Source of the DNA: Clavelina lepadiformis
Lineage: Eukaryota > Chordata > Ascidiacea > Aplousobranchia > Clavelinidae
NCBI RefSeq assembly: GCF_947623445.1
Contig: NC_135244.1
Coordinates: 22,382,860 to 22,446,859 of the forward strand
Direction of reading: 5' to 3'
DNA length: 64,000 nt
The position numbers and the translations under genes were made by a program. The number at the start of each line of letters is the position of its first letter. Position 1 is the stretch's first letter. The notes under the pieces were generated by a model. That model had not been told where the DNA came from. It saw only the letters and a program-made list of their open reading frames with translations, and ran no database searches. This document shows positions 3,244 through 29,718 of the stretch, piece by piece.

Positions 3244-3756
3244 TGAAGAAAGTTGGAATAGTGTTATGACAAAACGTAACCCGATATTGTTGTGATCACA
3301 TATAGGCTTAACCTTGGTAGCATTGCACTGTCCCACCGGTGGAAATGACGCTATTCGGCGGTGGAACGTAAACACCGTGTCAAAGTAACATATATAATCT
3401 CGTAAAAACAATGGCCAGTAATGAAAACAATCTCATAAAAACAAGAAATCTGGCATAAAGAGCGACAAAACAAGCTAAATTACACAATAAAACTCGATCG
3501 ATGTGACGTTGCATGTACTATACGTTTCTGTAGGCTACCGGATTTAGCCTGCGTTGTATGAATGTAAACTTGCGCACACTAATAACCGGAATTGAGGGTA
3601 GATGCATGCTACGTGGTCCTTTTGGTTCTTCAGTATAGTGACGTCATACCAGTAGGTCGACAAATATTTGGCAGAGAGTTTTTTTTCGAATTAGAGTTCA
3701 GCCTGGGCAGCTGTCAATCAACATGGCTTCAGTCAAAACCTGACAGTAATGTGACG

Positions 3757-6535: not shown

Positions 6536-7627
6536 CTTGCAGATGTTTTATCTATATTCAACCCGACCCTGTAGTGGAGTTACTTGCTACTAGGTTGCCT
6601 TGATACTTCCCTATTAAGCTTAATCAGTATTTGTTCAGGCTTATACAGAAATCTATAGAAAATCTCTCTTGCCAAGGATCCTGCTTTTGAATACCATTAT
6701 AAACAGTCAGTGAAAAATATTGTGGAGTCACTTTGAAGCAAAAGTTTATTGGTCTACCGACTGGAGTCTCACGCCGAACTTTGCATCTTCAATAACTGCG
6801 AGATTCGTAGAACGATAAGTTGAATTATACAAGTTAAATTATACTGTTAAACTCATACAACTAAAGCTGAGTTGGTAAAATTTACTGCAGCAAACTCTCT
6901 GATGTTCTTACCATCGATACAGTATCTACAGGTGAGAGCTGTAGCCTACTCACTAGCACTGGTATTCTGTTTATCTTCTTCGTCTTATATTCTCTGAACC
7001 GGGATTTAAATGCTTTGTCCCGTTTGTTTCGGACACAGTATTCAATTGCAGACTCTTTGCTTCGAAACAACCTGATCTCTCACCGCGTCGCTCATTTGAT
7101 CGCTTTATGACGTAGACAATAGCGATAGCTGAAGAAAAAATGCCCGCTTTCCAAGGGTTGAACGTCAGTATTGTGTGGGAAAATGGCGTTGACGAAATTT
7201 TGATTGTAGGGCAGAAATATCTTTCGTATACTGTGCAAATTCTATTATGTAATGTATAAATAAGTATTGACGTTTTGTTTTAACGTAGTTGGCAAAGAGT
7301 GGCACCGCCAGAACGTTCCATGGCTTTTATTTGCTGCCAATAAACCGATAAGTCTTTTTTATTAAACCAAAACGCTACAAAAATAAATATAACACTCAAT
7401 CACAGGTACAGTAAGTAAGTGCATAAGTCCAGCATCTGGCAAGTGCATAAGTCAGAGACAAAAAAAAACGGTATTTGAAGCACATTTGCTAAAAATTGGA
7501 TTACGCTTCGTACCTTCATTGTCGTGGTGTTGATGAAATGAACAATTGAGAAAACATTAAATCATAAAAATTGTTCAAAAACTACTCAGTCTCAGGATTC
7601 CAACTACATCTAATTCTAAAATCCTCA
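6536..7627. other. Intergenic: TTC9 promoter side and 3'UTR of scaffold copy A
   Basis: No supported exon. The TTC9 5' flank lies on the left. A minus-strand polyA signal (TTTATT on plus) at 7326-7331 is about 300 bases past the stop codon of scaffold copy A and probably ends it. A 62-codon minus frame at 6882-7070 has no supporting features. Confidence 0.5.
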
Positions 7628-10600
7628 TCAATCGTTGTGAACCAAATCGACCAACTTGTCAGTGTATTCTCGTAGGAGGGAAAACACCAAGCTATCTTCA
7701 GATAATTTCTCATCAAGGCTGTTCGTCCCGGTTTGAACTTCTACTGCACTAACCAACTTCAGTTCCCCGATTCTCGAATAAATTCCTCTGAAAGCACCGA
7801 TCATTTCTATGACGTCACTTTCATTCCCGCCATTAACCTACGAAAGTAGTTTTGTTACGTCAGTGCTATTTAACAAAGAAATCTATTCACAACAGACGAG
7901 CACGTCGAGTCGTACTTTATTAAAACAGCACTGGGAGACACTGACAACAGCAATAGTGTTTTTTTTTTCATGCTGCACCCAGGAAAGTTAACGGGAACTA
8001 ATCAGTCAACTTTATCAAAAGTCGTTAACATTTCAGTCACCAACCAACGCAGGTGAAATTAGGACTTCCAGGCTGAATAAACATAGAAAGTGTGAAATCA
8101 ATACCTCGCTTTCGTAAACATGCACAGCACGATCAAAGGCGTGAAGCATTTGGTCCTTTGCTGCTTTAAGCTCAGAAGGTTCATCCAATGACGATGGACC
8201 TGAAATGACGTCATCAACCGAGTTGATGTTGTCACCTACCATGTCCATTGAAGTTTCATCACCTGGTGAAGGACTTGAAACGACGTCATCATCTACCACG
8301 TCATCAAGTGAGTTGATGATGTCGTCTACTATCTCCAAGCAGTCTCGTCGTACTTCTCCTGCGTCATCACCTTGAGTCTTGTTTCATTAAAAATTGCAAT
8401 TGTTCAGTAATTTTAAAAGTGTTGTTTGATCTATAATTGTACGTTAATGTGCCATGTTAACAATGATCTTAGCACACTCCACGCGGAAATTATTCACAAT
8501 CTATATTATTTCATCAACAATTACAGCCACTACCTGCTGTGTTATGGGCTCCTGCATCACGACTTTAAACTCTATGTCAATCTGAGATTCACTCAAGGGC
8601 TTAGATTGAGCGATACTCGATGAGGATGAAGGATATTCATCATCTTCTTCAGAGGTTTCATCTTTTGTTGGAATGCTTGGGACATTCTCTGCAGGGATTG
8701 AATTTATTGGAGGTTCTTCCTCGATCTTTTCATTCCGCTCCTCCAGATACGTCGAAGTCCACACGAACACACATGTGCCCGCTGTCGAGATCAGCCGATC
8801 TTTGAGGTCAAAGGTCAAGCTGCTTATAGAAGCAGAATGGCTGTTCAAATCATGTAAGCACCTTTTAGAATCACTTATACCTGCGAAGTGATAAGGATTA
8901 GCCGTAACGCATAAGATAACATGGTTATCATATATTGTCAACATACAGTTTGTAGCATGGTAAACACCATTATTAGATATATTTACAGTAATATCAATAC
9001 CTACTGGAAGCAACATGCGTAGCATTCTGGGGGTTATAGTGACGCTCATATACCTTAAGTTGTGTAGAAAGTCTTGGACAAGTCTACTCACCAGGACTCA
9101 AGCTTAATATATAGATGTGATGGTTTCCACACGCCACAGCCACAATCGTCTTGCCGCTGTCGACTGCCAACTGAAATACTCTACTGGCGCAAGAATTTGT
9201 CTTAAATGAACGCTGCCATACGCCACCAGGGATGCTGTATTCGTGGATGGAACTAGCGCATCCAACTAGGATGGATTCCCTGTTCCAAAATATGCTTTTC
9301 AATATACAAAGTAATTTAGGAGATATCTATTAAATGAAAGTGCATAGGTCCTAGCCAATACAAGTGGTGTGTACAAAAGTAGTTCGAAACTTCATTTAAC
9401 CCACTTACTCCAGGAGAGCAATATCTGTCAACGAATCTCTATGGGATCTAAAAATTTCCTTGCTGTCCAGTTCCCCATCTCCGTCTGAGAGCGAGCAGAA
9501 ATACAGGCCGTGATCTGCTCCACACGTGATGAGTATAGTCTGGGAAAAGTTTCGGGACATGAGAGATAGGAAACTCGACTTTGCGCTAAATATCTGCTGG
9601 ACGTACTTTTTCACCGCATTGAACAAACTTGACCGATGCTACGGCCGCGCTGTGGCATCTAAGCAAAAAATTCCTCCGTGTGAATTCATCGTAATTCACA
9701 CTAACTTTTCCATTGTGACCTCCACAAGCAAGCATGTTGCTGTTTACCGCGTAATCCGCACAAAGAACACCGGTCTGTTGAATACGATGTGTCTTGCGGT
9801 GCTCGAACGCTTCAAGTTCAAACACACTGCACAAGAAAGTGCAACAGTTTACTTTAAACGTGATGTTGGCTTCCAAGCTTGGTACAACATTAAGGTAAAA
9901 TAACTAAGAACATTGAACGCTTTCTACAGAACGCCTATTGCGAAACCTACTGCACGAATCCTACTTTATCCCCGACAGCTAAATTCTTCCCATCATCTCG
10001 AATACACATCGGGTGGTGTTCCAACACAGAAGATCCTTCAGGGATATCACTTTGTCTCACGTGACTCTCTACGTTGATGACTTTATGTAGATCCTTTTGC
10101 CAGCAAGAAAAGTTGTATGTAGAAAGTTTTTGAATTTATGTGCCGCAACCCGCACTAGCCTATACTTACAACAGTCTTGTTCCTTGCTTGCCACGCCATG
10201 ACCTTTCCATTGTCACCACAAGTCAGAAAAGAATCTTTGGGGAGGGAGTTTAACTTGCTAGTGGATGGCATCACCTGATTGCGATAACAAAAGATAAATT
10301 CTTAGTTGCAAGATCTTTAGCAACCATCAAGTATATTCGTGAAATAGTTAGTGTTTTATTATTGAGCTAGTAACCAGCAGCCTTAATCATAACCAGTTCG
10401 TAAATGGCGAGCACCTGAACAGAACTCTATAATAAAACAATTAGAGTATTTATAAATGTTTTGGTAATCTAATTACAACATTAGAAGCAGTTGGATCGAG
10501 TTAATGCAAAAACAAACATACCACAACGTCACAGACATGTGAATTATGAAAGTCGGATTGAGAGTAAATGCGCGGGCTCATGATGTCAGACAAATCGAAC

Positions 10601-13407
10601 GTCACCAGTGAATGATTGGAATAAACACAATGCAGCCAGTTCTTTTGCGCATCCGCCGCCGATGCAATAATTCCGATGTTTCTAAGCAAGGGTGATAAAT
10701 AGGGAACCTCGCTATTATTGAGACACAGCCATATTATTGTCTTTATTACGTAGATTCCAAACTTAACCTCACCTGAGTTCCTCCGGTGGAAATACTTCGG
10801 TTATAAATTGCAAGGTGCTTGTATTGTACGCATGAATGGAGCCACAGCCACATCCACATAGAATGACGCCGTTTAAAACACTAACGGTTCTGCCTTTTCG
10901 GCACTAGAACGTATCAAGGAGAATAATTATAATTAATCTGTTGCTTGAAGTTATCCCAGAAAAATTTAGTAAGTTAGTTGATGTTGCACTTCCGGCTAGA
11001 TTGTCAAGAAAGAATTACATACCATGCTGGCTACATAAAAACACAAACCTGTAAAACCTCATGTCTGGCTGAATTAACTGCGATTCTCGGTCTGTTCTGC
11101 CTACTGTACTGGTATATGAATCCTCCCCTTGTGATGGCAAATGTGAATCCGGTGTCATTGCAGCATACGACGTCACAAAACGTGGAATGTTTTAAATCGA
11201 TAGAAGGCCGGTGTCCTCTTAACGGATGTTTTTCTCGCTACAGACAGCACATAAATTTTAATAAATTAAAACCAGAAGGGCGTAACGCACACGACCTACC
11301 ATGTCGCTCAGATTTCGAAAATTGACGTGATGCAAACCGACTGTCACGAAATAACTCCCGTCTTTAGCAAATGCCATCGCTTTAATTCCATTCGAAACCT
11401 TGTCTCGGTTCGATGTAAAGAGATTTTCATTCTAGGCAGAAATAGATGTGGAGGAAAAAGATGGGTTTAGTACTTTAGTTAGTTACTTTTTTGTCGCACA
11501 GTGACCAAAGTAAAACACTTCAATAAGCAACTAAAGCAACCCAAAGAAAAGCTTTTTGAATATCAACCTTTCGGTCCCACACAATAAGCTTGAAGTCAAA
11601 TTCATTTCCCGCTGAAATGATGTAATTTCCATTGGGGGTGAATCCAACACATGACACTTCTTCTTCATGTTCGCCGAATTCAGCGACTTGGCGACGATCA
11701 ATCAGAGAGAATAATCTAACCAGCGGGTTTTTACCGCTCTGTGGATAAAAAATTCGAAATTGGTTGAACAACAGCATTCAACAAGTTCATCATAACAGTA
11801 TGCTAAGTCTATAAGGCGACAGTCAATCAACAAAACATATATCATTTAAGTTAAAAGAACAGATGATTCGCGTTCAAATATTTCCTCACTTCTCCGGTGG
11901 CGATGAACTTCCCGTCCGGTGAAAACCTTAGACATGTGATGGGTTTTTCCCCAGGGCTAATGACGTAAAATCTTTCGTTGACTCTGACGTCGTAAAGGAC
12001 AATGACGCAGCCAGCTGGGTAAGCGACCAAGCCAGTGTTTTGGTCGCATGAGAAGGCGCGACCGCTTATCAATGACAGACCAAGTACGTGCTTCAGTTGA
12101 TAGTTAAACTACAAATTACAACAATTATACTTGTTAAGATTATTCACCGTAGAAAAAAATTCTGTTGCGCAAAACTTATTATTTCTTTGTAGTTTAAGCA
12201 TCTAAGGTTGATTTTTGGTGCAATTTAAGCATCCAGCGATTACGGAATGCACAACTAAACCCGCCCATTTGCCTAATATGCTGTCCAAAACGTCAACCTG
12301 TATCCCTAATGTTTTCGCCGTCAGGGCCGATTTATAATAAACAAACAAGGCAAAATTGGTTGTTTAAACTTGAGTTGGTAAAATATAAACAAAAAATTGC
12401 AGCTTCCTGCCACCATGCCAAAATGTGGTTCTCTGGACGCACGATTTGTTGTGGAAAACTGCCCTATTTTCTGGTCTGGTTTTAGCTAGTTATAAACTCA
12501 GCAATCATTTAACAGGATCTCTTCTAGGCGAATAGAAGTGACGACACGACTGCAAACCTTTTTTGGGTTACCGCACGATTTCTTGTCCAAAATTACCACC
12601 GATACTGGATCATAGATCAGGCTGGCGGTACTTCAAGGAGTAGGCCTTTTAGTTATTCTTGAAATGAAATCATTGCACTTACAGCGACAGCTCAAGTTTG
12701 CTTCAACCACGGTAGGCCTACTATTTATTGTTAAGGGAAAATTTATTATCGAGAAACTTCTTGTTACTGCAGACGTCTTATTCATAGATATGTTGTAAAA
12801 GAAATATTCAGGTCACGGCTCGAGAAAACTTGCAATAAGTTATTAAAGAATTGTTAAAAGTTTTGCTCGGACAATTTACTGCAATACGACGCGTTTCAAA
12901 AAAAATGTTTTGAAGATGGACTGGTCTTTGTTTGGAGATAAAAACCCGGATGCCTAATTCTTGTCATTATTTTCGATGGGTTTGAATACAGTATTTGTAG
13001 CCGTAGCAGGCTCAATATTTTATTCAAATGTTTCGTTTCAACAGTAAAAGGACCAAAAAATGCTAACCAATTACACCTGAAAAAGGCAAACTTAATAGAT
13101 GAGAGAAACGCGGCAAAGCCATAAGACTTACAACATACCAGTTGGAAAGCTTGCTCATAAAATTCTAGCTAACTGTTGTGGGACTGAGGGTTTACTACAA
13201 TTCCACGGCTAAACTTTTCCGCCAACACATGTAGGTTTAAAGTAAAATATGAAACAGAATATAAGATGACACTCTGTAGGGTTAACGTTCATTTGTAACC
13301 TTGTAGGTCAGGCTACATATAGGTTTGTCATCTTCAAAATGAGCTCGCCAGTTTTCAGAAACAAATAACGACATTCTTCATACCTTTTCTCTCAGCTGCA
13401 CCGGCAT
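7628..13407 (-). CDS. MAPKBP1/WDR62-like WD40 scaffold, copy A (short, divergent)
   Basis: Exons in transcript order: 13407-13384 (tentative start, MPVQLREK), 12108-11890, 11738-11568, 11431-11300, 11237-11049, 10903-10773, 10681-10522, 10274-10170, 10093-9951, 9826-9607, 9539-9409, 9279-9092, 8880-8534, 8377-8105, 7837-7628. All joins from the second exon on are in phase; the product is about 880 residues. It opens with HVLGLSLISGRAFSCDQNTG and [12 protein letters not shown] and runs through two beta-propellers of WD repeats typical of MAPKBP1/WDR62, which scaffold JNK signalling and act at spindle poles. The C-terminus is much shorter than copy B: the long linker exons are missing, leaving an acidic exon, a helix (KDQMLHAFDRAVHVYESE) and the end LLREYTDKLVDLVHND. 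Exon lengths match copy B almost one for one. The 8377 acceptor (AAG) is weak. Confidence 0.85.
8105..8377 (-). repeat. Acidic exon of copy A with internal duplication
   Basis: The exon encodes two related acidic units, VDDIINSLDDVVDDDVVSS and VGDNINSVDDVISGP, each followed by a Ser/Pro segment. The exon then ends in the helix shared with copy B. The internal repeat suggests local slippage or duplication replaced the linker found in copy B. Confidence 0.5.
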
Positions 13408-16015
13408 TGTTTTTCTTCAAAGGGGCTTCACCATTGCGTTAGTTGCTCTATTTACTTTTCCTGGCAGCTGAGTTATGGCACGAGCTTATTACATCTAATA
13501 CTCTGACTTGCTGGCGTTATCCATAGCAGGATTGCTAAAAATAAAGCGCTATAATGTATACAGTAGAAGTGAATGTTGTGAATGAAGTGAGTGTTTTCCG
13601 TATAAAGGAAATAGCGCACGACCAAAATTTCTAGGAAGACTGCAGATGTTCGTAGTCTTAGCAATCACCCTAATTTTCATTGCACCTAACACCACACTCA
13701 TAAAACAGCGGACACCAACATGAGTTTAACGAAAATTTTTAACACAAGGATTTGCAAAAGACGTTGCAGCTTCATAACCTTTATTACAAAGCTCGGTTTG
13801 ACTTCACATCTCCACAAGTCATAGGAAATATAATACGACCACCACAGACAAAGCACGTAACTGATTCGCGATCTTAAGGCTACATGTAATCGCGTGTAAC
13901 AAAGGAAGAAAATTGTCAAAGGAATTTGTTGCGTCACGGTTATAGTTTCTCAAACATGTTTTCCATATAAAAACTTTCCAGACCGTTAACACGTTTTTAA
14001 CAAATAATTTGTAGAAGAATCAGCGAAAATTAGTTTCAACAAAGACCAAATCAACACATCTCATTTGCAGTTGAATTAATACACCGTTGGTCTTACACGC
14101 AACACTTGACAGATTGATCGTAAGTTAGTAAGCTTTGTCCTCGCTATATTTCGCTGGTAAAAGTCTGTCATGTTTAGCTCTAGGACGGAATTTATTTTGC
14201 TCAAATTGAAACTTTACGAAAACGAACGAAACTTTTTACGTAGCCTACACCTGAAATCACAAACACGTTACGAACATCTTGTACTCTGTCTAGCAAACAA
14301 CACACAAGGTGCCGTCTATTTGTAATCACCGAAGCGAACAAACGTTATGAAAGTAAATATGACTTGTCAACTTAAAACACATTTATAAACTACGCACGAT
14401 GCGTCCGCTGAAAGCACCGCCTTACTGTTTCATTTGCAGTTTAGTGCTGTGTATGCATTTAGTCCCTAGGTCGTAGCTACATTGAGTGCCTGCACGAATT
14501 TTAGGGAATTCTGGCAGAAAACATCAAATTTTAACAACGCATTTAACCTGGGGCCCCTGACTATGGCCTGGAGTCTAATAATAATTTTACATTCACCTCA
14601 AATGGTAATCTTGATCTGGTATGAGCTCGAACCAGCAAAGTATAAAAATAAATCAAGGAAGTTGAAGGTTACCTGGTAAATGTCATTACTATTCTACATC
14701 GAAGGACACACTGTCGTCATCTCATATGATGTCATCAACAGCTGATGGAATTTCTTTTCCACTAAATGGGATCGCAAAAATCACAATTTTTCAGCTATTA
14801 TTTAGAAGAAACGAACTCATTTTTACTCGGGAGTAAAAATAGCATCAGCCTAACACAGTTAGCTGAACGAAAAATTTAATTTCACAGGTAAAATAGCTCA
14901 AATACAACCACTTCGCACGCTGTGAAAGTTCAACGAAACGTCCAAGCACAAAAGCGTCAAGTCAAGTTTATTGCAAAACATCCTGCCACGTATCAATGCA
15001 TCACCAAATAGACTTGTACATTCACACACTTTGCATAGGACTGTAGCGGCTGGTATGACGTCATAGTTGTAGGGGACAGCACCGTTTTTAGGCGAATTTA
15101 AACAGAAAAGACAAAAACGGACGAAAAAACTTAAACGACGGAGTAAGAACCACAGTACATATGGATTGTATGAATTAACACGCACCGCGGTAGAATTATA
15201 TGAAATTATGAGCACGGAATAGTTCCTGCAGTCATAAACAAGACAGTGGTCATGGGAAAAAAGTGAATTCGCTCCGGAATTAAAGGAACACGGGAAAGTG
15301 CTGATGGAGAGTAAACACCTACAGTGCAAGTGCCGGTGACTGATCGAAATTTCGTTCGCAAATTGAACATTTTTCGTTCAGCTGTGCAAGGGTTATGGGA
15401 ATTATACAGAACAGTCGAGAAGAGTGATACGAAAGTTGCATGAGATGAAGCATGAGATGAAGGTGACAAAAAATTCAGTTGAAAGAAGAACCTGAGAAAA
15501 AGTCGAATTCTCTCAAAAGTTTGATTTTCTTGCAAAATTCCGGGAAAGATGCGAGATAACATGCGTTGAAAGAATAAAGTATCGAATGAGATGCAAAAAG
15601 ATTTCAACGTGAAAAAGGCAGCTAGAGCAATGTAGCTGGGGAAAAACTGATAAATAACCAAAAGTTACACATCATAAAAATAAATACTACAAGACAGCAA
15701 AGGTTGTTCGCACTATGGAGGCACTTTGAAACAAAGAAAATTCGAGTAAACACCTTTATGGATTTCATACAGCAACAACATGGGTTAGTTTGCATCGCAA
15801 GACACTATTCCAAGCACCAACGCAAATAATAAGATTGCTTGGAGAGGGGAAGGCCCTCGTAAATGTGAGCATTTCACATGAGGGCTTTGAAATGATATGA
15901 AATTCATATCACGCATTGTAACAGTGGACGTTGTCATGAACTCAATGCATAAATAACGTTTCCCTATGCACTGTGCTGATAACTTTGCCAGACTTGTTAT
16001 GATGTCATTATGACG
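12112..16015. other. Spacer between the two scaffold paralogues
   Basis: Apart from the tentative 24-base first coding exon of copy A (13384-13407), no exon is supported. Minus-strand open frames at 13473-13937 and 14898-15661 have no family signal, no splice-site pattern and unbalanced composition. Repeat-like sequence occurs at about 12320-12620. The promoter of copy A and the 3'UTR of copy B must lie here. Confidence 0.5.
12320..12620. repeat. Dispersed repeat, second copy near 27.45 kb
   Basis: The segment starting GATTTATAATAAACAAACAA, followed by a TGGTTGTTT block and a ccatgccaaaa/gcacg block, recurs in similar order at about 27458-27640. Similarity is partial and judged by eye; the family is unknown and no clear ends were found. 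Confidence 0.35.
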
Positions 16016-19000
16016 TCATACCATGTCGGCTTCTTCCGTCACCACATTTGCTCGGTTGTCCACTTGGTGATGCACGAGGTCAACAAGTCTATTTGAGTAT
16101 TCTCGTAATAGGGAAACCACCGCAACATCATCACTTAAGTTCTCTAGTGATACCGTTCGGGAAGGCACTTCGTCTTTTTGTTCGGGATTAATTGAGATCG
16201 GAAGATTTAAATTTCCGATCCTTGAGTTGATATTTTGAAATGCTCGAACCAGTTTTTGAAATCCGAAGAAATTTCCGTTTTTAGAAGCTTTTGAGTTATT
16301 CTGGAGCTCCTGTGAATACGAAAATTATGTTAATGGGGCATTAAGATGATTAAAACATAAACTAGGTCCTATTTATAAGCTACAGCAGTGAACCCAGTGT
16401 TTGAAATGATAAAACACATTAATTTAGACCAGGGGTGGCCAACCAGTCAGAGACCAAGACCTCACTTCTTACTGTGTTAACCGCAAAGAGCCACATCATA
16501 CACACTATGATTTATGACGTTTTTTCTGATTACGTCATAATACTGCATCAGATATTGTTTCAGTTTCATCATCCTTACTCTGGTTCGAAATCTGATGTAA
16601 TCAGTGATTATTTAGCAAATATCAATAGAACATTAGCCAGTAGAGATTACTTTTCTGTATTATTTATCTGCCTAAAATGGGTAAAAAGTGCTCTCTTTCG
16701 GAGGTTCAAAATGAACGAAAAAGCCGCATAATACCGGGCAAAGAGCCGCATGCGGCTCGCAAGCTGCGGGTTGGCCAGGCCTGATTTAGACAATTAAGTG
16801 CAAAGATATTTAACAGCATAGAAATCTACCGGCAAGAAAATGGAATTCAAAAATCACAAAATACCATCTGTTTATTGTAGACTGCTTCAGCATGGTCGAA
16901 TATAGCCAGGAGGTCGTCACTTGCTTTCTGGCATTCAAGCTGAGCGTCATATGAAGTATCACATGAGCTGTCTGAGCTCTCCTGTGAGTCATGTGAGTGG
17001 TTGTTGTTGAGTACCAGGTTCACCCTGTTGTAGGAAGCCGCACCTGGGGAATGACGTTGAACAAAGTTGTCTTAAACTTGATTCCCGGCATCCTTAATTA
17101 CTCATATAACAGTATTGGAGATTGATAGCCAAGTTTAAAAACAATATTTTCAGTGCATAGACATCAAACTTCAGCAAATGTAAACGAAAAATTAGGTCTT
17201 TATATCATCCACAACATCAGCGTATGGTGGAAAATATGAAATTACATACTGCATAGTACATTATACACCGTAACCAAAAAAGTAAAGATTTGAAATTTAC
17301 CAAGACTTCTTCTACTTTCGTTGCCGTTATTGTGATCTCCGGCTTCGTGAAGAGCTCGAATTTGTCGCTGTTGCGCTCTTTTCAATGCGCTGTCTCCATC
17401 CGAGTTGTAATCCCTTCCTAATGCTTGAGACTTGGCGGGTGTCAAAGGCGAAACTTTTGGGGATCGATTCTTTGTTAAACTTGCGAGGAGCTCAGCGAAT
17501 GCGGGCGGCATGGCTGGCTTGTCAATGGATGGTTTCTTCTCACTCTGGTTCATGTTTGGATCGTTTTCATTCAAATCTTCTTCAGGATTGTCTTCATTTT
17601 GATTTGAATGTCCATTCAACGACGATTTATCAGCTGCCAATGATTTATCGTTCATCGAAGACTGCAGCGATGGTTCAGCAGCCACATCTCTGTCTTCAAT
17701 TTCATCAAAATTATTTTTTACCTTGTCATTCTCAGGCCTTGATGTGGTTGAGTTTTGCAAATCTAAAACAATTTCATGATCCACGCCCCCATTGGGGATA
17801 ACGTTGTCGTTGACATCTTGTTTGATTATTGTGACGTCACTGTTAGACACTTCATTTACAGAATTCAAAACATGATTGACAATTTCCTGGCAAGCTTTGT
17901 TAACTTCTTCGCTTGGTTGCGATGTCACAATGGGGTCTGTAACATCATCTTTGTTCTCTTTGAGACTTTCAGGCAAGATTGGAGATTTTTTCTCAGATCT
18001 CGGACTAAGGCAGATCTGAATGGCGGCAGTTGATACAAAAGTTGGCTGATCACTTGCATTTGTCATGTCTGTGTTCCATTTGCTGGATGCAAGATCCTTT
18101 GTCGAGTCCACCTTGCTTCCGTAGATTACATTCCTGATGTCTACGTCCTCTTCGTTTCCCTCCATTGTGATGTCACAGAGTTCATCACTCTGGTTGAAAC
18201 TGGTTGTAACTGGTTCCAATGCTGGGTCGGGCAGTGAATTTTGAGGAGTGATGTCTGAATCTAAGTCCGGAGCATCGTCATTGCTCAGCTGTGATGTAGT
18301 TGAGCTCATGCTCCTGTTTATCTCCTCCTGCAATGAGATAGAGTTCTGGACTTGATCTTCAGGAGGATCAACACAGAGAGGAGGAGAAATAAAGTTTTCC
18401 TCATCACGAGCACTCTGAGTTACAACCTCCACATCTTCATCTGTTTCCTCTTCCAGGGAGGCTTTGGAGTCTTGTGTGGAGTCGATTGAACTCGATTTTG
18501 TGTTTTGGTCAACAGCCTCTGGTGCAGATGAAGCCGTGACCTCATTTCGTGATGATTGATCGAGGATGGAGGAGGAATTCTCCTGCACTTCCGATGTGGA
18601 AGCTTCAAGCTCGTTAGATTCATCGCCCTCATCACCGCTGCTGTGTTCTGCACACTCGTCAACTCCTTTAATAATTTCAACCTTATCCACTTGTGGCAGT
18701 GTTGAGCTGTTTACTGGTTCAATTATCGCCGTGTTAGTGACATCTGCACATTGGTCATGATCTGGTTTCATGACGGTGACGTCATCATCACGACTTATGA
18801 CATCATAGGCAGGCAGACGCGCAACTGTGCTGTCATGTCCTCCAAGGTTGTTTTCTGAGCGGGAGAGTAAGATGAAGCAATGTATAATATTAGCATGTGA
18901 AATAATTAACTAACTTGATTAAACAGTTGAAACCATTCCTTGGTTAAAGAAAACATCAAAGTTTTTAGATACAGCCTCGATGAACCAATTTAACAGGTTG

Positions 19001-22000
19001 GATTTAATTTACCTGAAACTTCATTGAAATCTTCTTTATCCGAGAACAATTCCTGATCACCGTGGGAACTTATCGTTGAATTGACTTCATAAGACTTTGC
19101 AAGATTCTCGATTTCTTCATAAACCTAGGTTTTGTAATAATTAGCTTTGTAATAATTATACCTAGCTGCATAGTTATCAACAATGCTTCTAATTACGAAA
19201 GGCAATTTCAAAAAGTCTGGGATTCAACAACTTGGCTGTTTAAGTGAAATAAAGAAAATTCGCCAGTAAAGCTAGAATATATTGTTACGTTATTTTGGAA
19301 GATGGTTCGTGCAACCACAACAACACTGACACCAAGTTACATACCTTGTCTGGCTCCAGTTTATTACCCCATTTACCCAATGAATGTCTCGGGGTTAACG
19401 AGAACGGGGTTTCCTCACCTTCAGGCAATTGCTGGATGAGCCACTTTGGAAGGGCGGGGGTTCTTGGCGTAGACAACATCGAATCCGCTTTGAAAAAAAA
19501 ATGAATCAAGTTGGTATCGAGGCAGTAATAGCCTCACCAGTAAAGTTTAACTTCAAAGTGTTTTTGGAACCGAAACAGTCTCATAAATTTCTTCACCGGT
19601 CTTTTAAAATTTACACTTATGCAAGTAAAGCAAAAAATTAGTCAGTTAGTCTTTAAGAATCGTCTTTAATTTCTTAGCAGTCTCCAAAGTAAAACTTTAA
19701 AAAAGTTGTGCCATTTCTACAACTTAGTTTGCATACTTATGTATTGGCTATAGTTGTATTCACTGTAAACTGTACAATAATCGAAAACACAATTAGTAAC
19801 TAACCTGGATTATTGGACGAATTATAATCAACCTCTCGAGAGTCATCATTGAAAAGGGTCGGAAGAATATTCCCGTTTAAAGCTCGTGGGGTCCCGTTGA
19901 CCTCGCTGCTTAAATCATCTGCAATCATCGCACCAAAGTAGTCGGTTTTGTTGAGATTACTTTCTGGGGTCGACACCGATGGCTCCGACGCTGGCTGTAG
20001 CTGATTCAGGTCTTCACTGGCATTATGAGTCAGTGACCACACAAAAACACAACTATCGGCCGACGTTGAAAGCAGTCGATTTTTTAGGTCAAAGGTGAGA
20101 GCTACGGCCACCTCTGAATGGCCGCTCAACACACTCAGACATTCTCCTGCATTAAGTACAATTGAGATATATGACTTCTATGTTTTTTCGAGGAGACTAA
20201 CAAAAAATTTCCTTGCACTATGATGAAAACGAAATTAAAGAAGAAAGTTGTCAAAAACAAACTAAATGAGTCATTTAATATGAATGGTTATGTAGTAATG
20301 CTTACAGTACATGTTAATAATTTATAGCAATAACATGCAAGATGCATGTATTTAAAAAGTCATGGACATGCACAACAGGTTATTTCTGAAGTCTACAAAA
20401 GTACCACATGTTTGTAACATAGCACATGTTTTTTCTATCAACGAGCTTCGTAATACCTGAAGCAAACCCCACAACATAGATATGCTTATCAGTGCACGAA
20501 TTGGCCACCAGCGTTCTTGAACTGTCTACAGCAATTCTGAAGATAGTTGCGGTCGAGTCATTGACTCGAAATGAACGACGAAACTTTCCACCAGTGATGT
20601 CGTATTCACTTAGAGTTGTACCACAAGCGACAAGCACAGAGTCTCTGTGACAACACAAGGTTGTTTTTTTAAACTAACGATGATAACAAACTGCTTGTCA
20701 AAAAAAGACTCTATTTGAATCCTCCCTACAGATGATCTTGTATGGCCAAAATATATTTTCAAAGACCCATTGCATATACTATTCTGTTTATCACATCATA
20801 TCATATAGACATAACTTTATTGTCCGCTGATCTTTGTTAAGCTTTCAACTCACTCAAGCACAGCCATGTCACTCATCGAATGCTTTTCAACAAAGTGTTG
20901 ATCTCGACTGATTTCGGTTTTTCCGTTGTTGCTTGTGATGGAGCAGAAGTAAAGCGATTTGTCCGCGCCACACGTGATTAGACGAAACTAAAAATAGAAG
21001 AGTTTTTAAAAACATGGAATACAAGGAACTTTTCATAAAAATGATAAATAGTTTGTTGATACAAAGTAAAACACGGATCTTTAAACACTTCTCACCCCGT
21101 TTTCTTGAGGAGCGAACTTCACAGATGTCACTGCGGCTGAATGGTCGGCAATGGTGTGCGTTGGAGCGTATTCCTCGCTGAACGTGTGGACGCACCTATC
21201 GCGACTCGCTGACGCAAGCACGCCTCCAGTGGTGGAGTAATCCATGCAGAAGATATCCCCATCATGCGTTGGGATTAAGGCAAGTCTCTCAAACGACTCC
21301 AGGCTGTATATGCTGTGGATGATGAAGAAAAACATTACAAGTTTAGTTTGGGGTGAACTATTCAATGGTGAAATTCACATTTCACCAACAAACATGATCC
21401 ACAAGTATTGCTGTATTTTTATCAACCATACAACTTACTGAATGTTTCCTGCCTTGTCTCCTATCGCCAGATGCTTGCCGTCATGTCGAATGCAGAGCGA
21501 TCGAGCTTCGTACTTCGACGTCATTTCTTCGCTCAATTTGTCTGAGGCGTTGTCCAGTTTTATAACTTTCAAAAGCTCCTGGAATTGTCGCAAAGAAGAA
21601 ATTGAATTTCAAAAACCACATTCTTTTAACCAACTTCTTTTTAAAACTCTGGGTGAAACTTTGTTGCTATTCACTTGACGCGACACCAAACTTTTTCCAC
21701 AAAAGGCCAGATAAGCATGAGGACTGACAATCGCGAGTCAAATGCCCATTTTGTTCAATAAGCTTCAATACAATAAGCTCATTTGTGGCACGAAGAGGCA
21801 GGCCGGACAAAGTAATCTCACGGGCCATAGTTTGGTGACCCCTGAACTAGTGTATACATTATATGTACATAAGTAAGCGTGCGTCTGCTTCATTTCACTT
21901 ACACATGTATTTTCACAACACTGCCAAGCACGGGTCGACCCGTCCGTGGAACAGGTTAGAAAGCAATCCTTGGGGAGAGATTTGCACTCACTTGACCCCG

Positions 22001-25000
22001 GAACCACCTGTTATAATTACGACAAAATTTTAAAATGCTTTCTATCAATGTTGTCATGATTGATTAGGTTTGATATTAGTGGTGGATCTGTTTTGGTCGT
22101 TCCCCAACCACCAGGCTTGTATTCAAAGTAAACAAAAGCCCCTAATTATAATTTTCCAACAACTTTAACAAGGTGAAATCAAAGACAAAAATATCATAAA
22201 TAAACATAAAAGTCAACAAGCTATGTTTGAGGACACAGAAAAGCAATTAGAGCATCATTGAGTGAAATAAATAAATAGCAACAAGCATTACCTTCACGTC
22301 CCACACACAGGAGTTATGAAACTGAAATAAGGAGTTGATCTGCGGCTGAGAGAAGTCCATGACGTCAAATACAAGCAAAGTGTGGTTTGAATAGACACAA
22401 TGCATCCACATATTTCGCATGTCAATCGCCGTGGCAACAATCTCTTGATTTCTATGGACAGTGAAGTGTGTTATACTGCATTTTGTGTAAATGTACATAA
22501 AGTGTTGTCGTTTGCGAGATCACGACCCACTAAAGTTCGATTAAACACTAATCGATGGAAATCATATGTTGTATGCTGAGCGCAAACAAAAAATTCCTTC
22601 CCATCTTTATAAACCTGAAATTGCTAAGTAAACAAATGTCTCCGCCTACTGAATAAAGAGAGGACTAGGTATGCTGAGGACTACCTAAGGAGTTTGTCTC
22701 TTTTAGCAAAAGGTTGACAACAATAGTCATTACGGGGAATTATAATTATAATAATACACACAAAGCCTTAAGGGATTTGACGTACTATTGACCAATAAAG
22801 GGATTAAAGTTAAATATGACAAGCTTGACGCTGCTGAAATGATCATTTACTTTAAGCTGCTAAATTACACGTGTAAATTTGTTAAAGAACTTATCTACAA
22901 CTTTGAGTGATGTGAACATACCGGACTTGTGTTGGTGGAAATATTTCCGTGATAAATTCAAGTGAAGCTGAGTTGAAAATGTGAACAGAACCAGTCGCAC
23001 ATCCGCACAATATCATGTCGTCAATGCTGCGTACTGTCCTTGCACCCCCACACTGTTATAAGGAACAAGATCGTTTTAAAATACAACAACAACGCCACAA
23101 AGCGTCGCGATAAATACTTATTAAAACTGGGCCAGTCAAGTGAGCTCAAGAAGCCCCTGAAAACACAACTATACATAAAACAGTTGGTTTGTCTTACTGT
23201 ATACCTTTAACTCGACAAACTTTTCAACAGTTCTTTTTGAATTGAACTGACATAAAATCCCGGATTTTGTGACGGCGTAAGTCAGATGAGAATGGGCCCC
23301 TGTTCCGCAAATGACATCACAGAAGATGTGGTTCCTCAGCGTGTCGAGGATTGCTGATCGGCCTTTCAGTGGGACGGTCGTGTTCTGAAAGTTCAAACCA
23401 GGATTATCTGATGTCCACGTTCCCGTTACTTTGCTTAGAATAAAATAGATCTCACATCAGTAGTGGAGTTCTCCAGATACCAGAACTTGACGTGACGATT
23501 TCCAACCGTGATAAAATGGCTGCTGTCTTCAGCAAATGCAACCGACTTGACTTTCGTTGAAACTTTGTTTGTAGCTGCAAGTTTGTCTTTCTGCAAAAAG
23601 AAACGGAAACTTAAGTAACTAACAAGTAGAAATTACTATATACAATTATACATATATGTGTGGGCATCACTAACGGTAACAATAGAAACCAATAAAAGTT
23701 TAACTATAGCTTCGCGCAGTCTTTCACCATCATTTCTTTGCGTGCAAACAAAGGAAATAAAATAAAGCAGTAGTAGATTTTATAGCAACGTCATTCACTC
23801 AAAATGGGCATAGTATGCCAAGCTAGTGGGAAGTACAGAGAGATAACAATGCGTTGGAAAAATTTAGTTTGCGCTTCCAAACAGAATAAATGAAAGCAGA
23901 TTTGCGGATTGAACCAATTTACTCATTTCACAATTAAAAATCAATCATTATGTAACAGAATGAACTTGCCTTCCAATCCCAAACATTGATAACGTTGTCA
24001 TGCTGGTATCCGATTGATATGACATACTTGCCACTCGGTGAAAATGAAACAGATGAAATTCCAAATTTATGCCCGGACAGTGAAATCACTTGACAACGGT
24101 CGGTTAACGAAAAAACTCGGACGCAAGGTTGATGACCAGCCTGCAAATATTTGAGAATCAAAAACTATGATATCCGTTGTTTGACCGTCAAATAATATTT
24201 ATAGATATATGACACTATTCAAATAATCCACGTAGAAATGATAAACTTAAGGACGCTTCTTCAAAATGTTGAAATATATCGTAACTGACAGCATGAAAAA
24301 GTTCTTTGTTTAATTTTTATTGGTAGAATTGATTAACTGATCGATGCATCCTAATTAATTTTGCGCATTTCAAGCAAGGCCCCACTTCTCTGGTGCAATA
24401 AAAGGTGCAATAAAAACATGCAAAAGCTTTTATCGCAAGCTATAATTTGTCGCCTACTTATGTGTACTTAGCTGTCCAGTGAACTATCACCAAACAACTG
24501 CACAAAATCTTTCATACAACAGAACTATACATTTACACCAAACGTGACAATTTTCTCACCTCTCCCGTCGTTATAAAGCAACCATCCCTTGAAAACCTCA
24601 AGCATGTTATTGTCTTCTGGCCGGGGTTGAATATATGGGATTGCTTGTTGCTGCCGGGGTCGTAGAGAACTATCACACAGCCAGCAGGGTAGGCGAGCAG
24701 TCCTGTGTTTGGATCGCAGGTGAAAGCGCAATTGCTCTTTAATGTCAACCCAAGCACATGCTTCAGTTCAGAGCTATACTGCAAATACATCCAGAAATTT
24801 TAGGTGACGTGTACAATCACAAAAAACTTTATATCTTTGAATTTTAAATCTTTCAAAGCGGTACTTGTTTAAAAAACAACAAGATGTTGGCTTGTGGACT
24901 GAAAATACAAATTAAACTAAACATGAAAATATCCACACTTGCTACACAGTTTAAACAAGAAGGTAATAAACTTATACAAACATTATAAAATCGTTGTACC

Positions 25001-26127
25001 AGGTTTACCAGTACCCCACCATTTAAAATATATTTAACATCTTTCGTATTTTGTTCATTACAATGTAATGTTGGACTACTGCCTGCATATGAATATTAGA
25101 ATTTCAAGTCAAATATGTGGTAGTATGGCCAGTAGGATATCATAGTTTTGTTTCAAAGTTAACCTAGCACACACGCCAACATTCTTTTGCGGAGAGACCT
25201 GGCATTCAATGAATTGTAATCAAAAGAAGACAAACAATGGCTTTCAACCAAGTTTCACTTTACATAAAGCTTGTCCATTGTAACCATACAACAGGCTTGT
25301 TAGCCAGAGCAGTGGTAGAAACCTAACATGTAGTGATTATTGACAAACTGACTTACTCAACACAATTGAAGGTGACCCGGTAGTAAGCTGGGCTATTTTG
25401 TTAAGTTAAAGCATACACATATCATCACAGAACTGTGCTCACATTAACGGCTATGAAACTAAAAAATAGTTTGGACACTGTTTTAACATTTTATGCAGCA
25501 ATACATTAACGTTACCATACTATGCTTTACATCAAAGATTTGTGTTTATTTTAAACAAAAGCATGTTACAATTTTTCCAAGAAGGGAATCAATTCATCAA
25601 ACCACAAGAAGTTTGATTTTTTGTTTAACAATGGACACTTCCGACGAACAACCAATTTTTGTTTTATGTCTAGTTGTCATGCACATAAAATGTTTGCAAA
25701 GATATAAATATAGCAACCAGTGATATCAATACATCACCGTGCTTATTTTTTGCAACAAAATGATGACAATTAATGGTTACAAGAAAGGCACATCAGCAAC
25801 GAAATATATGTGTGTTATACAGTTATTAGTTTACAGTTGTCTGTCAATGCCACAAGTTTTATTAAAGAAATATATAATCGATTAACCCCAATTTAAATAC
25901 AATAGCAAACTTATATGTCGAAAGTACACGTAAGTTTCATGATATCGCCTACGCTACCGGTCGGATAGATATTATTTCTAAAAGTCGTTCTGTACCGATA
26001 TATACTGCGCATGACCAACCTGCTCCGAGAATGCATGACGGCTTCTTCTCCTGTAGTGATACCCAGAATAAACTTTCTTTCTTCTGTAGTAGGAATCTTT
26101 TGAACCTGGGTTACTCCTCTCCGACAT
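16016..26127 (-). CDS. MAPKBP1/WDR62: MAPKBP1/WDR62-like WD40 scaffold, copy B (full length)
   Basis: Exons in transcript order: 26127-26020 (probable start, [12 protein letters not shown]), 24778-24560, 24140-23970, 23590-23456, 23384-23205, 23052-22922, 22451-22292, 22007-21903, 21578-21439, 21312-21096, 20987-20854, 20644-20457, 20146-19805, 19487-19345, 19124-19013, 18854-17301, 17043-16865, 16309-16016. Every join is in phase, giving about 1503 residues, close to human MAPKBP1 and WDR62. Hallmarks: [94 protein letters not shown], then [13 protein letters not shown], a 517-codon Ser/Asp/Glu-rich exon and a C-terminal helical region. The family scaffolds JNK and MKK7 and localises to spindle poles/centrosomes. 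The intron after 23970 has a GC donor. Exon 1 fits by phase and basic N-terminus but is less certain. Confidence 0.92.
16430..16783. mobile_element. Non-autonomous hAT transposon (MITE)
   Basis: The 354-bp element begins CAGGGGTGGCCAACC and ends GGGTTGGCCAGGCCTG, inverted ends of hAT type. It is flanked by a perfect 8-bp target duplication ATTTAGAC (16422-16429 and 16784-16791). It lies in the last intron of scaffold copy B. The 98-codon open frame inside has no transposase signature. The perfect duplication suggests a fairly recent insertion. Confidence 0.88.
24779..26019 (-). other. First intron of scaffold copy B
   Basis: A 1.24-kb AT-rich stretch between the probable first exon and the first WD exon. 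No other exon is supported. Confidence 0.45.
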
Positions 26128-26724
26128 ATTCTTGTCATAACACCTTGCTCGTTTAATTGCTAAGAATAAGGTGATAATGACCCAACCATTGAACTTTTTG
26201 TTACTTTAGCGAATTGTCTATGATTTCTTTGCAATATATACTACTACCACCCTATAAAAATAATTCACAGTCATAAATGATCAAATGTTTTAGTTAAATT
26301 AGTACAAAATGTAAGCAAATTATTTTGCACAGTTATGCAAAAACGAATCATACATATCCACTGAAGTGTAAAAAAATAAAGTTTTACTGTAAAAAAGTTT
26401 CAAGGTAAATTACTTTAAAATGGTATAGTTACATTCTTCAATACATTTTGCTCTGAACTATTTCATTCATCAAATAAAATTAAAATATATTCATGAAAAA
26501 TCTCCCTTGTTCAAACGTTAATTGTTTGACAATAGACGAACACACGAACAATGTGAAGTGAAGAACACTGAAGGACATATTTCATGCAAACAGTGTTAAA
26601 TTTTGAAACATTGCTAATACAAAAATAAAAATCATAATACTAAGAGCATATGGATTTAACAAAGCAGATTACATCAAACTGTAACAGTGGAATAAACGTT
26701 ATGGACTGGACTTGGAGATTAAAG

Positions 26725-27042
26725 TTATGAGCACTTCCACACACAAATGGCCATGTTTCCACCAAAGAACATGTACAAGATGTTCTTTGTCTCGTGAGTG
26801 ATCTCAAAACCAAAACCTTCCCCGACAATTGTGTGCCAAGAAGCCCCGAATTTTTTGTCCATGTTCTCTTTAATCATCTTCGCTGCGTTTTCGTTGTTTG
26901 TGCTAAATTTCTCACATGCAGTCACACACAATTCCATGGCTTCCACCCTCATTTCTTCAGGCATGTCAGTATGACGGATCAGTGGATAACTGTGAAGTCG
27001 ACGGAAGTCGTGAGCTTCTTCTTTTTTGGTTTCAGTTGCCAT
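26725..27042 (-). CDS. DNAL4: Dynein axonemal light chain 4, intronless
   Basis: One uninterrupted exon of 105 codons plus stop, the same length as human DNAL4. It contains the diagnostic PLIRHTDMPEEMRVEAMELC, ACEKFSTNNENAAKMIKE, MDKKFGASWHTIVGEGFGFE and the C-terminal GGNMAICVWKCS. This is the LC8-like fold light chain that dimerises and binds dynein intermediate chains of axonemal or cytoplasmic dynein. The start is the first ATG, followed by MATETKKEEAHDFRRLHSYP, aligned with the family start. No introns, although other genes here are finely split, so a processed copy that became the working gene, or intron loss, are both possible. No clear polyA signal was found. Confidence 0.96.
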   Translation of the reverse strand: MATETKKEEAHDFRRLHSYPLIRHTDMPEEMRVEAMELCVTACEKFSTNNENAAKMIKENMDKKFGASWHTIVGEGFGFEITHETKNILYMFFGGNMAICVWKCS

Positions 27043-27457
27043 ATTGGTTTTAAGCAGTTACGTGTACAAAGCTTTTTAAGTTATGGTGTAGGTTTCATAA
27101 GAAACTCTGTTAATTCAAAAATATACTTTTTCTATTGTTGTGGAAACTACTATAAGAAGGTTTTAAACAAAATCTCAACAGTTGAGACACAAAATCTAAG
27201 GATAAAAGCTTAGAATCCGTGCAACAATAGACCACAGACTAATAATACGTGTGTGACGTGGTTGAGCTGCAATGGTCTTGTCAAGACTTTATGAAGTTAA
27301 TAATCCTTGCTTTATTTCAACATTGCTGCAATATCCAGGCATAATTGGAACTTATTGACACCTAAAAGCGTGGTTATGACCCTTGAGCAGAGACTTGTGC
27401 CAGTTTGTACTTCGTACATTCACCACTATATACACCGAAGTTTTTATCCTCTTGTCG

Positions 27458-27640
27458 ATTTATAATAAATAAACAAAGAAAAAATGGTTGTTTGAATGCC
27501 AATTTACAATAAATAAACAAAGAATTGAGGCTTCAGTGCACGCCATCACGCCAAAAGTAGCTTTTTTGCACGCACTTCTTGTCTAAAACTGACATACTTT
27601 CCAGTTGGGGTTGAACAAAATCTGCATTGGGTTTAAGTTG
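27458..27640. repeat. Dispersed repeat, copy of the one near 12.3 kb
   Basis: Begins GATTTATAATAAATAAACAA and contains a second TTTACAATAAATAAACAAAG unit about 45 bases later, then the cgccatcacgccaaaa block also seen in the 12.3-kb copy. Family unknown. Confidence 0.35.
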
Positions 27641-29065
27641 TGCAAAAACTTTCGCCATAGTCCCTGTTAACAAACCATGTTATGATATTTTCTAGGCCCA
27701 GCAAGTATAATTATATATGGTAATTATAATTAGGTATTTATGCTCCTGTTCGTGACAGAGAAGAAGAATCCAACTAAAATACCAATTTTCATTAAACTTT
27801 TTATACTTTCTACATAGGCTAGGTAGCCTAGGCTAGCAGGATGGCAAAATGTTTTTCGATTTTGACAAGTTTTAAAACCCTACTGGAAATTTTGTAGGTT
27901 TCTGTCCAATCTTCTGGAGCAGAATTTCTGTTTGGCCCTAAATAAGTATAGGCCTATTACGTTGGTTGTCGTGATTTAAATTTTAGCATTACATTAATCT
28001 GGTGAACTGAAATTAAAACTTCCATTATAAGGTTTTAAAATATATAAAAACTAGGCAATTTGTTGAAATTAATTACTAATCGCACAGATGTAACTCTCGT
28101 CCCACCTGGTTTTTGGTGAAAATAAAACCAGTAAATCAACTTTCAGACTTTTCAACCTGGACCGGTGAGACTTTTCAACCTGTACCACACAGAAAAGATG
28201 CATAGTCTACTTACACAGGCTAGTCCTAATAAATCCATAGTTTGGTAGCTTATGCTTCACTAGAGGATGTTTGAAAAATGTTTAAGGCGTGTAGGAAAGC
28301 CAACAGAATACGATATTTCGCATGGAGGCCTACCGACCACTATTACACCAAACACATTCCACAACCCTTCTCCCTAGCGACTGAAGCAGGACTGATTTGT
28401 TTGGGTTGGCGTTGTCAACTGTTTGAACTTTGCGCTAAACAATTTTTTTCTGTTATTCGGAAAATATTTTATAATTCAGTCAATGACGTTTAATGCTTCA
28501 TCCATAGAACCATGAAAAAATAACAATAAAATTATTTTTAACGTATCGAGTTAATTTGTAAAAGTTTTACAAATTTTTAAGGTTTTAAGACTAACCAAAA
28601 TGTATTTTATTTTTTTCACATGGAGCGCCAAGTGACGCTGTTTACCTCGCATTATTGCCAGTAAGTGGCAGCAAAGAACAACACTTGCTCCCACAGAAAA
28701 GTAATTTGTTTGATATGCAAAACTAATAAACTGAAAATCAGTGCTATTTGTTACTTTGAAACAGTATTTGAGATTGAGACCCAAGAATACCAAAACATAC
28801 CTTTGAAATGAATCACCAATGAAAATGTCAATGCAAAAATTGTTACTGCTTGACGAATTTAGGCAAATTAGTTGTTTTTATTGCTGCAATACACCAACAC
28901 CTATATATCATGCATATGTTTGGAATTATATAATCTCATTCTTCACTTAAAATTGCGTCAAATGTCGGACAAGAGCAATTGAGCTGTAATTCATAAAAAC
29001 TGGATTCGTGTGGTTGTATTTATTGTAATGAGATATAGATATAAGTAAAACAAGAAACAGGAATT

Positions 29066-29256
29066 AGTTTGGCACCCTTAAGGTTAACTTTATATTTTTC
29101 GACACGAGTTTTCACAAGCATAAGCTTGCTGCTTCAGGTGTACTTTGAAAAATCCATTTTTGTGATCCATTTTTCACAGTACACCTGAAGAAGGAAGCTT
29201 ATGCTTGCGAAAGCTCATGTCGAAAGATATAAAGTTAACCTTCAGAGTGTCAAACT
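29066..29256. repeat. Fold-back (long inverted repeat) element
   Basis: Two arms of about 80 bases, left 29066-29148 and right 29176-29256, are inverted copies at roughly 85-90 percent identity by eye, with a spacer of about 27 bases. Arms start AGTTTGGCAC / AGTTTGACAC and share AAGGTTAACTTTATAT and AAGCATAAGCTT. No coding capacity. It looks like a fold-back MITE; its transcript would form a long hairpin. Confidence 0.75.
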
Positions 29257-29556
29257 ATATCCTCTTTCTTATTTTATTTTAAAATTTGATTAACACGGTT
29301 CAGACAACATCAACATAGATATAAGCATGATAGGTAATAAAGCCTATTCTCTTGGGAACGAATGCTTTTTATAGAATTGCTATAGTGCTCTGCTATAGTG
29401 ACTTTGCATGTCATAATTCAACCGCACATTTCATCAAAGAATAGAACACGTCACCGTATTAGGAAAATAATTCCGTTGTATATAGAGAGAAGAAGGTATC
29501 GTTTTTCATCTAGAAAATTCGAAGTACAGTACAGTGAAGTTTCTTATCGTCAAAAA

Positions 29557-29718
29557 ATGAAGATGATTCGTCTAGTATCGATTGCTTTTCTTGTTTATCT
29601 GGTCAAGGTAAAGACTATCTGCCTTGCTTCAGAAACAGTGACGCATTCGCTGATCCCACCAACCAGGATGCTTCATCCAACATCGGTGAACCTCCGTGAA
29701 GGGATGGTAAACGGGTAG
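29557..29718 (+). CDS. Possible short secreted peptide or signal-peptide exon
   Basis: A 53-codon frame beginning MKMIRLVSIAFLVYLVK, a good signal-peptide core (basic start, hydrophobic stretch). A plausible donor (AAG|GTAAAG at 29608) would make this the first coding exon of a spliced gene, but no following exon was found. If unspliced it encodes a small secreted peptide. No family recognised. Confidence 0.2.
   Translation: MKMIRLVSIAFLVYLVKVKTICLASETVTHSLIPPTRMLHPTSVNLREGMVNG

What the first reader, a model, noticed from the sequence alone, without database searches (positions are those of the whole stretch)
7628..26127. Tandem MAPKBP1/WDR62 paralogues with matching exon lengths and phases
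Copies A and B are head to tail on the minus strand. Twelve consecutive WD-region exons correspond, with lengths (A/B) 219/219, 171/171, 132/135, 189/180, 131/131, 160/160, 105/105, 143/140, 220/217, 131/134, 188/188, 347/342 and equal phases, so this is a duplication with introns. Copy A's protein is clearly more diverged from the vertebrate pattern. Vertebrates have two family members, MAPKBP1 and WDR62; a local pair here could be an independent duplication.
Basis: partly seen in the sequence, partly recalled or inferred. Interest (0 to 1): 0.75.

Follow-up and report, generated by a model that had tools for sequence, protein, structure and literature searches.

The report
Tandem MAPKBP1/WDR62 gene pair, tunicate
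A genome that looks like a sea squirt's carries two neighbouring copies of a cell-division scaffold gene that vertebrates appear to have duplicated separately into MAPKBP1 and WDR62, and one of the two copies has changed fast and lost most of its tail.

Summary
Two complete MAPKBP1/WDR62-family genes lie head to tail on the minus strand. All 12 quoted exon-length pairs are exact. All 12 introns compared have equal phase; 11 share the alignment column and one is 3 columns off beside a gap. B is the long form (18 exons, 1503 aa); A is short (about 880 aa, first exon uncertain).

No invertebrate outgroup was available, so an older split is not excluded. Synonymous sites are saturated.

New here: A keeps both WD40 regions and the C-terminal dimerisation segment, but its linker is 143 aa against 715 in B. 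A may be a JNK-blind partner of B. This is inferred and weakly grounded, since B itself has only a partial JNK-docking motif. Genome searches showed no further member among the matches examined; four of six outside matches to B were not examined. Assembly statistics fit Clavelina lepadiformis. Expression was not testable.

The parts
16016..26127 (-). Gene B, long MAPKBP1/WDR62-family scaffold, 18 coding exons, 1503 aa
   Evidence: Spliced frame open with one terminal stop; PF24780 384 bits, PF24782 264 bits
26020..26127 (-). B exon 1 (MSERSNPG..., exits in phase 0); start codon not proven
   Evidence: nearest in-frame upstream stop at 26208
19805..24778 (-). B exons 2-13: double WD40 region (the 12 exons matched by A)
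19345..19487 (-). B exon 14, LPKW motif (aa 756); no counterpart found in A
17301..18854 (-). B exon 16, 1554 nt, linker rich in Asp, Glu and Ser by eye; at most a short remnant in A
16016..17043 (-). B exons 17-18: RVNLVLNN (aa 1353, partial JNK D-motif) followed by the C-terminal segment
7628..13407 (-). Gene A, short fast-evolving paralogue, 15 coding exons, about 880 aa
   Evidence: Spliced frame open, one terminal stop; PF24780 215 bits, PF24782 120 bits, scanned without exon 1
13384..13407 (-). A exon 1, best candidate (MPVQLREK); uncertain
   Evidence: highest donor score of 14 phase-0 ATG candidates listed for 12109-16015
8534..12108 (-). A WD exons 2-13, matching B exons 2-13
8105..8377 (-). 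A exon 14: linker remnant plus first block of the C-terminal segment
7628..7837 (-). A exon 15: rest of the C-terminal segment, stop
   Evidence: tblastn of the B tail hits 7807-7637, 49% identity, E 7e-10
13408..16015 (-). Interval between B stop and A start candidate (2608 bp), AATAAA at 14972, 14196 and 13785
16016..16024 (-). Donor-like ATG|GTATGA overlapping B's stop; phase 0, in frame with A exon 2 if used
   Evidence: score 7.0 against 4.5-10.4 for the donors used to build the matrix; 4 of 192 GTs in the interval downstream score higher

Best explanation
A DNA-level tandem duplication of a single MAPKBP1/WDR62-family gene in the tunicate lineage, old enough for synonymous sites and introns to be scrambled. 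Shown from sequence: both copies are intact and matched exon by exon; A evolved about five times faster than B in the WD region (with recalled human sequences as reference); A keeps the two WD40 regions and the C-terminal segment that in MAPKBP1 mediates dimerisation, but its linker is 143 aa against 715 in B. Inferred: B does the ancestral job, a scaffold that dimerises through its C-terminus, sits on microtubules, spindle poles or basal bodies through its propellers and is regulated through kinase docking in the tail. A is a specialised partner that can still dimerise with B but cannot dock JNK; an A/B heterodimer would then stay on microtubules when JNK is active, as reported for wild-type/delJBD mixed dimers of human MAPKBP1.
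For: Exon lengths and splice sites; 12 introns of equal phase, 11 in the same column. Pfam family. WD identity 281/622, dN about 0.48, dS 2.7 (LWL85) or 4.5 (ML), undefined by NG86, YN00 failed. Neutral decay of A from B would leave on average 19-25 stops in the WD region; none is seen. Quartet AB|MW 70 sites versus 7 and 5, bootstrap 100; branches A 0.87, B 0.17; 79 versus 25 unique changes, chi2 28. A and B share gaps against both human proteins, one of 20 columns. C-terminal alignment score 154 against a maximum of 62 in 500 shuffles. Linker 143 versus 715 aa. No NFAT4, JIP1 or RxxLxL match in A's tail. Literature: WT/delD and more so WT/delJBD dimers of MAPKBP1 become more filamentous, and the C-terminal coiled-coil domain mediates homo- and heterodimerisation (passages of PMC12347751). 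Own genome: 20 of 26 matches to B's WD protein lie in the window; of the 6 outside, 2 are in an EML-like gene and 4 were not examined.
Against: No RNA or protein evidence for either gene. Human sequences in the tree are recalled. The unrooted quartet also fits a root on the A branch (A ancient, lost in vertebrates), which would inflate A's branch. B also fails the strict NFAT4 and JIP1 patterns; its RVNLVLNN lacks the last hydrophobic residue, and RxxLxL arises in 28% of shuffled B tails. The loose classical D pattern matches A (RRDCLEI, aa 730; 19% of shuffles) and not B, the reverse of what the JNK-blind reading wants. [quoted passage not shown] Only 2 single WD40 repeats pass in A against 5 in B. 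Amino-acid identity alone does not show constraint on A: neutral decay over a quarter of the divergence gives 0.46 against 0.45 observed. Heterodimerisation is untested.
Confidence: 0.5

Rival explanations
1. Independent tandem duplication as above, but A has a separate, B-independent function (for example tissue- or cilium-restricted) and does not act through A/B dimers.
For: Strong rate asymmetry and loss of linker are also what ordinary neofunctionalisation gives; the D-motif evidence for a JNK difference is weak.
Against: The C-terminal segment is retained where the linker was not.
Confidence: 0.3
2. A is an ancient paralogue that predates the vertebrate-tunicate split and was lost in vertebrates.
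For: The unrooted quartet cannot exclude a root on the long A branch.
Against: Tandem position and shared introns; gaps shared by A and B against both human proteins; the best PF24782 stretches use 303 (A) and 305 (B) residues for 334 and 341 profile positions, while the recalled human proteins fill the profile.
Confidence: 0.1
3. A and B are the two vertebrate lineages: A = WDR62, B = MAPKBP1 or the reverse (ancient pair).
For: None found; 7 and 5 sites favour the two pairings against 70.
Against: AU p below 1e-48 against both topologies; MAPKBP1-WDR62 identity 66% versus 31-42% to either tunicate copy (recalled sequences).
Confidence: 0.02
4. A and B are joined by splicing in some transcripts (not exclusive of the other readings).
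For: Donor-like ATG|GTATGA at B's stop, phase 0 like A exon 2; A's first WD exon has no ATG of its own.
Against: Separate complete C-termini, AATAAA after each gene, 2.6 kb between them, a usable exon-1 candidate for A; 4 of 192 GTs in the interval score higher than this donor.
Confidence: 0.07
5. A is a decaying pseudogene.
For: Fast evolution, shortened linker, fewer passing WD40 repeats.
Against: No internal stop in the spliced frame and usable splice sites throughout; length differences are multiples of three in 11 of the 12 WD exons, and the 347/342 exon is compensated by a different intron phase. Neutral simulation gave at least 11 stops in every one of 400 runs.
Confidence: 0.03

Closest known systems
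Vertebrate MAPKBP1 (JNKBP1, NPHP20)
   Same: Double WD40 region, long linker (B), C-terminal segment (A and B). Domain layout from passages of PMC12347751.
   Different: A lacks most of the linker; the D-motif, RAHLVLDI by recall, is RVNLVLNN in B and has no counterpart found in A.
Vertebrate WDR62 (MCPH2)
   Same: As above; B has LPKW where recalled WDR62 has LPLW.
   Different: B is about equally distant from WDR62 and MAPKBP1 (42% and 41% identity, recalled sequences), so neither copy looks like its one-to-one orthologue.
Vertebrate MAPKBP1/WDR62 pair
   Same: Two members per genome.
   Different: The human copies are on different chromosomes and both have long tails (recalled); here the copies are in tandem and one tail is mostly lost.

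Membership tests
MAPKBP1/WDR62 family (gene B) | First and second WD40 domains PF24780 and PF24782 | tested here: met
   Best two families, 384 and 264 bits, E 1e-114 and 3e-78, but under the curated cut-offs of 496 and 290
MAPKBP1/WDR62 family (gene B) | C-terminal helical segment | tested here: met
   Aligns with the recalled human C-termini in three blocks; helices themselves not predicted
MAPKBP1/WDR62 family (gene B) | NFAT4-type JNK D-motif before the C-terminal segment | tested here: inconclusive
   Strict pattern not matched; RVNLVLNN keeps RxxLxL, which 28% of shuffled tails also contain
MAPKBP1/WDR62 family (gene A) | PF24780 and PF24782 | tested here: met
   Best two families, 215 and 120 bits, below the curated cut-offs
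MAPKBP1/WDR62 family (gene A) | C-terminal helical segment | tested here: met
   A versus B local score 154, maximum of 500 shuffles 62; helices not predicted
MAPKBP1/WDR62 family (gene A) | Long linker with JNK D-motif | tested here: not met
   143 aa linker; no NFAT4, JIP1 or RxxLxL match; one loose classical match RRDCLEI
Tandem duplicate pair | Adjacent, same orientation, shared intron positions | tested here: met
Lineage-specific (independent of vertebrate) duplication | A and B closer to each other than to either vertebrate copy | tested here: met
   45% for A-B; A to human 31%, B to human 41-42% (recalled human sequences, unrooted)
Lineage-specific (independent of vertebrate) duplication | Other tunicates and invertebrate outgroups place the split inside tunicates | not testable with these tools
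   The tools used here gave no other animal genome

The most novel reading that the evidence does not exclude
Gene A is a natural JNK-blind member of the MAPKBP1/WDR62 family that heterodimerises with B through the retained C-terminal segment and locks it on microtubules or centrosomes, so that the tunicate evolved by gene duplication the mixed dimer that has been built artificially for human MAPKBP1 (wild type/delJBD).
Probability: 0.15. Interest if true: 0.6.

Novelty: new variant of a known kind. Interest (0 to 1): 0.35.

Why it matters
MAPKBP1 and WDR62 are linked to nephronophthisis and primary microcephaly (abstracts), and how their dimers use the JNK-docking tail is open. A chordate outside vertebrates that duplicated the same ancestral gene on its own, and stripped one copy's tail while keeping the WD40 regions and the C-terminal segment, gives a natural separation-of-function comparison. 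If only the duplication is real and not the mechanism, it is an ordinary lineage-specific paralogue.

Tried and rejected
Ancient-pair reading: rejected by the quartet. Pseudogene reading for A: rejected on stops and frames. Third family member in the genome: PF24782 gave 32 matches, 4 in the window, all B exons; PF24780 gave 17, 6 in the window; B's WD protein gave 26, 20 in the window. Of the outside matches I looked at five loci: L009 and L010 read by eye as F-box/WD proteins; three pieces of L021/L022 score best with EML, and two pieces of L023 score better with other WD families than with PF24780. The other outside matches were not examined. A's exons were missed by the PF24782 search, and A's own protein search did not complete, so an equally diverged copy could be missed. 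Duplication boundary: a 150-bp match between 12328-12471 and 27456-27601 also occurs in the unrelated locus L013, so it is a dispersed repeat. Hidden A counterparts of B exons 14-16: tblastn of B's tail found only the last exon, and the A intron there is 156 bp. Short linker match [20 protein letters not shown]: 4 of 300 shuffles reach its segment score, reversed A scores 55 against 65, and the whole-linker alignment is reached by 67 of 500 shuffles; kept only as a possible remnant. Solved structures, queried with B's first 668 residues: no chain named MAPKBP1 or WDR62 among the 60 shown of 121. Structure prediction was not attempted, since spliced proteins are not letter-for-letter window translations. 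Papers (held library only): WDR62+tunicate 0; WDR62+Ciona 3, of which PMC4015606 (passages) clusters a Ciona WDR62 with fly after dropping 6 of 14 orthologues and has no occurrence of MAPKBP1; MAPKBP1+tandem duplication 7, 6 listed, none on this by title; a broad six-term search held 1,933, 12 listed, none on this by title.

The rivals' odds overlap and are unchanged.

Full report
What is there. The minus strand of 7628-26127 holds two complete genes of the MAPKBP1/WDR62 family, B upstream and A downstream. I rebuilt both from the sequence. B has 18 coding exons and 1503 aa; A has 15 and 880 aa if its best exon-1 candidate (13407-13384) is right. All 12 pairs of exon lengths in the finding are exact, and the modelled introns are GT-AG except B intron 3, GC-AG. 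The first 12 introns have equal phase in A and B; 11 share the alignment column and one is 3 columns off beside a gap. The intron after the twelfth WD exon does not match: phase 0 in A, phase 1 in B.

Family. The two best Pfam families for both proteins are the MABP1/WDR62 first and second WD40 domains: B 384 and 264 bits, A 215 and 120 bits, all under the curated cut-offs of 496 and 290; single WD40 repeats pass 5 times in B and twice in A. The WD parts of the human proteins, recalled from memory, score 657/613 and 638/577, so the recall is good enough for a family-level comparison, and both tunicate copies are diverged, A most.

Age and constraint. A and B share 281 of 622 aligned residues in the WD region; third positions differ at 64%, dN is about 0.48 and dS is saturated (2.7 by LWL85, 4.5 by ML, undefined by NG86; YN00 failed). 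In a simple neutral simulation A would carry on average 19 stops (a quarter of the third-position divergence on A) or 25 (half), never fewer than 11 in 200 runs each; it has none. The same simulation gives 46% amino-acid identity for the quarter case, so identity alone shows no constraint; the evidence is the open frame. Exon length differences are multiples of three in 11 of 12 WD exons. At DNA level, comparing 1-16015 with 16016-30000, only the first WD exon, a dispersed repeat and one 54-bp inverted match align.

Tree. On 615 gap-free columns, sites favouring A+B against MAPKBP1+WDR62 number 70, against 7 and 5 for the two refuting pairings. Maximum likelihood gives 100% support in 200 bootstraps, AU p below 1e-48 for the others, and branch lengths A 0.87, B 0.17, MAPKBP1 0.19, WDR62 0.26, internal 0.78. 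A has 79 unique changes and B 25 where the other three agree. A and B share gaps relative to both human proteins, one of 20 columns. The human sequences are recalled and the quartet is unrooted, so a root on A is not excluded. From established knowledge (recalled, not tested) MAPKBP1 and WDR62 lie in a 15q/19q region pair left by the vertebrate whole-genome duplications, which would make a tunicate pair independent.

What A lost and kept. From the last WD motif to the first C-terminal block B has 715 aa and A 143. For B's LPKW exon, exon 15 and nearly all of the 1554-nt exon 16 no counterpart was found in A, and the intron there is only 156 bp; a short remnant is possible (4 of 300 shuffles). 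The last two exons are kept: the A-B alignment scores 154 against a maximum of 62 in 500 shuffles, and the blocks align with the recalled human C-termini. [quoted passage not shown] In my recalled sequence the D-motif string is RAHLVLDI, at 1287 in a copy 6 residues shorter than the length I recall (1514). Recalled WDR62 has RANLRLTL at 1294. PMC4670726 (passages) calls the family's motif NFAT4-like. B has RVNLVLNN at aa 1353, which fails the strict pattern and keeps only RxxLxL (28% of shuffled tails have it); A has neither. A looser D pattern matches A once and B never. The JNK-blind reading is therefore a lead.

One gene or two. Each copy has its own C-terminus and stop; the nearest AATAAA lies 265 bp after A's stop and 1044 bp after B's. 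But B's stop overlaps ATG|GTATGA, a donor-like site scoring 7.0 (modelled donors 4.5-10.4; 4 of 192 GTs in the interval score higher), in phase with A's exon 2, so read-through splicing deserves the RNA-seq check.

Copy number and source. Searches of the window's own genome found no other family member among the matches examined (limits under Tried and rejected). Genome size 209.06 Mb in 95 contigs and contig C4 of 25,070,715 bases fit the Clavelina lepadiformis genome note (210.1 Mb, 102 scaffolds, 9 chromosomes, N50 25.1 Mb; passages) better than Ascidia mentula (197.0 Mb, 9 chromosomes; abstract in the listing); the identification is an inference.

Verdict. A real, intact, old tandem duplication, most likely independent of the vertebrate one. 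The unusual part is copy A: fast-evolving, linker largely removed, C-terminal segment kept. Its role as a JNK-blind partner is a testable inference, not a result.

Noticed in passing
26725-27042 (-): Single-exon dynein light chain (PF01221, 110 bits; DNAL4-like by recall), about 600 bp upstream of B on the same strand; only match in the window.
   Followed up: partly
about 26160 (-): Acceptor-like ttattcttag about 32 bases before B's ATG (sequence): a 5'UTR intron or a trans-splicing acceptor, given the close upstream dynein gene.
   Followed up: no
23969 (-): B intron 3 uses a GC donor (gcaagt) while the matching A intron uses GT.
   Followed up: no
12328-12471 and 27456-27601: Copies of a dispersed repeat, 71% alike, also in unrelated locus L013 at 69%.
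   Followed up: partly
16420-16790 and 21650-21845: Stretches in B introns 17 and 8 that look by eye like hAT-type non-autonomous elements.
   Followed up: no
57198-57536 (+): Glypican exon, PF01153 39 bits, above cut-off; a second piece at 57457-57855 scores 18 bits.
   Followed up: no
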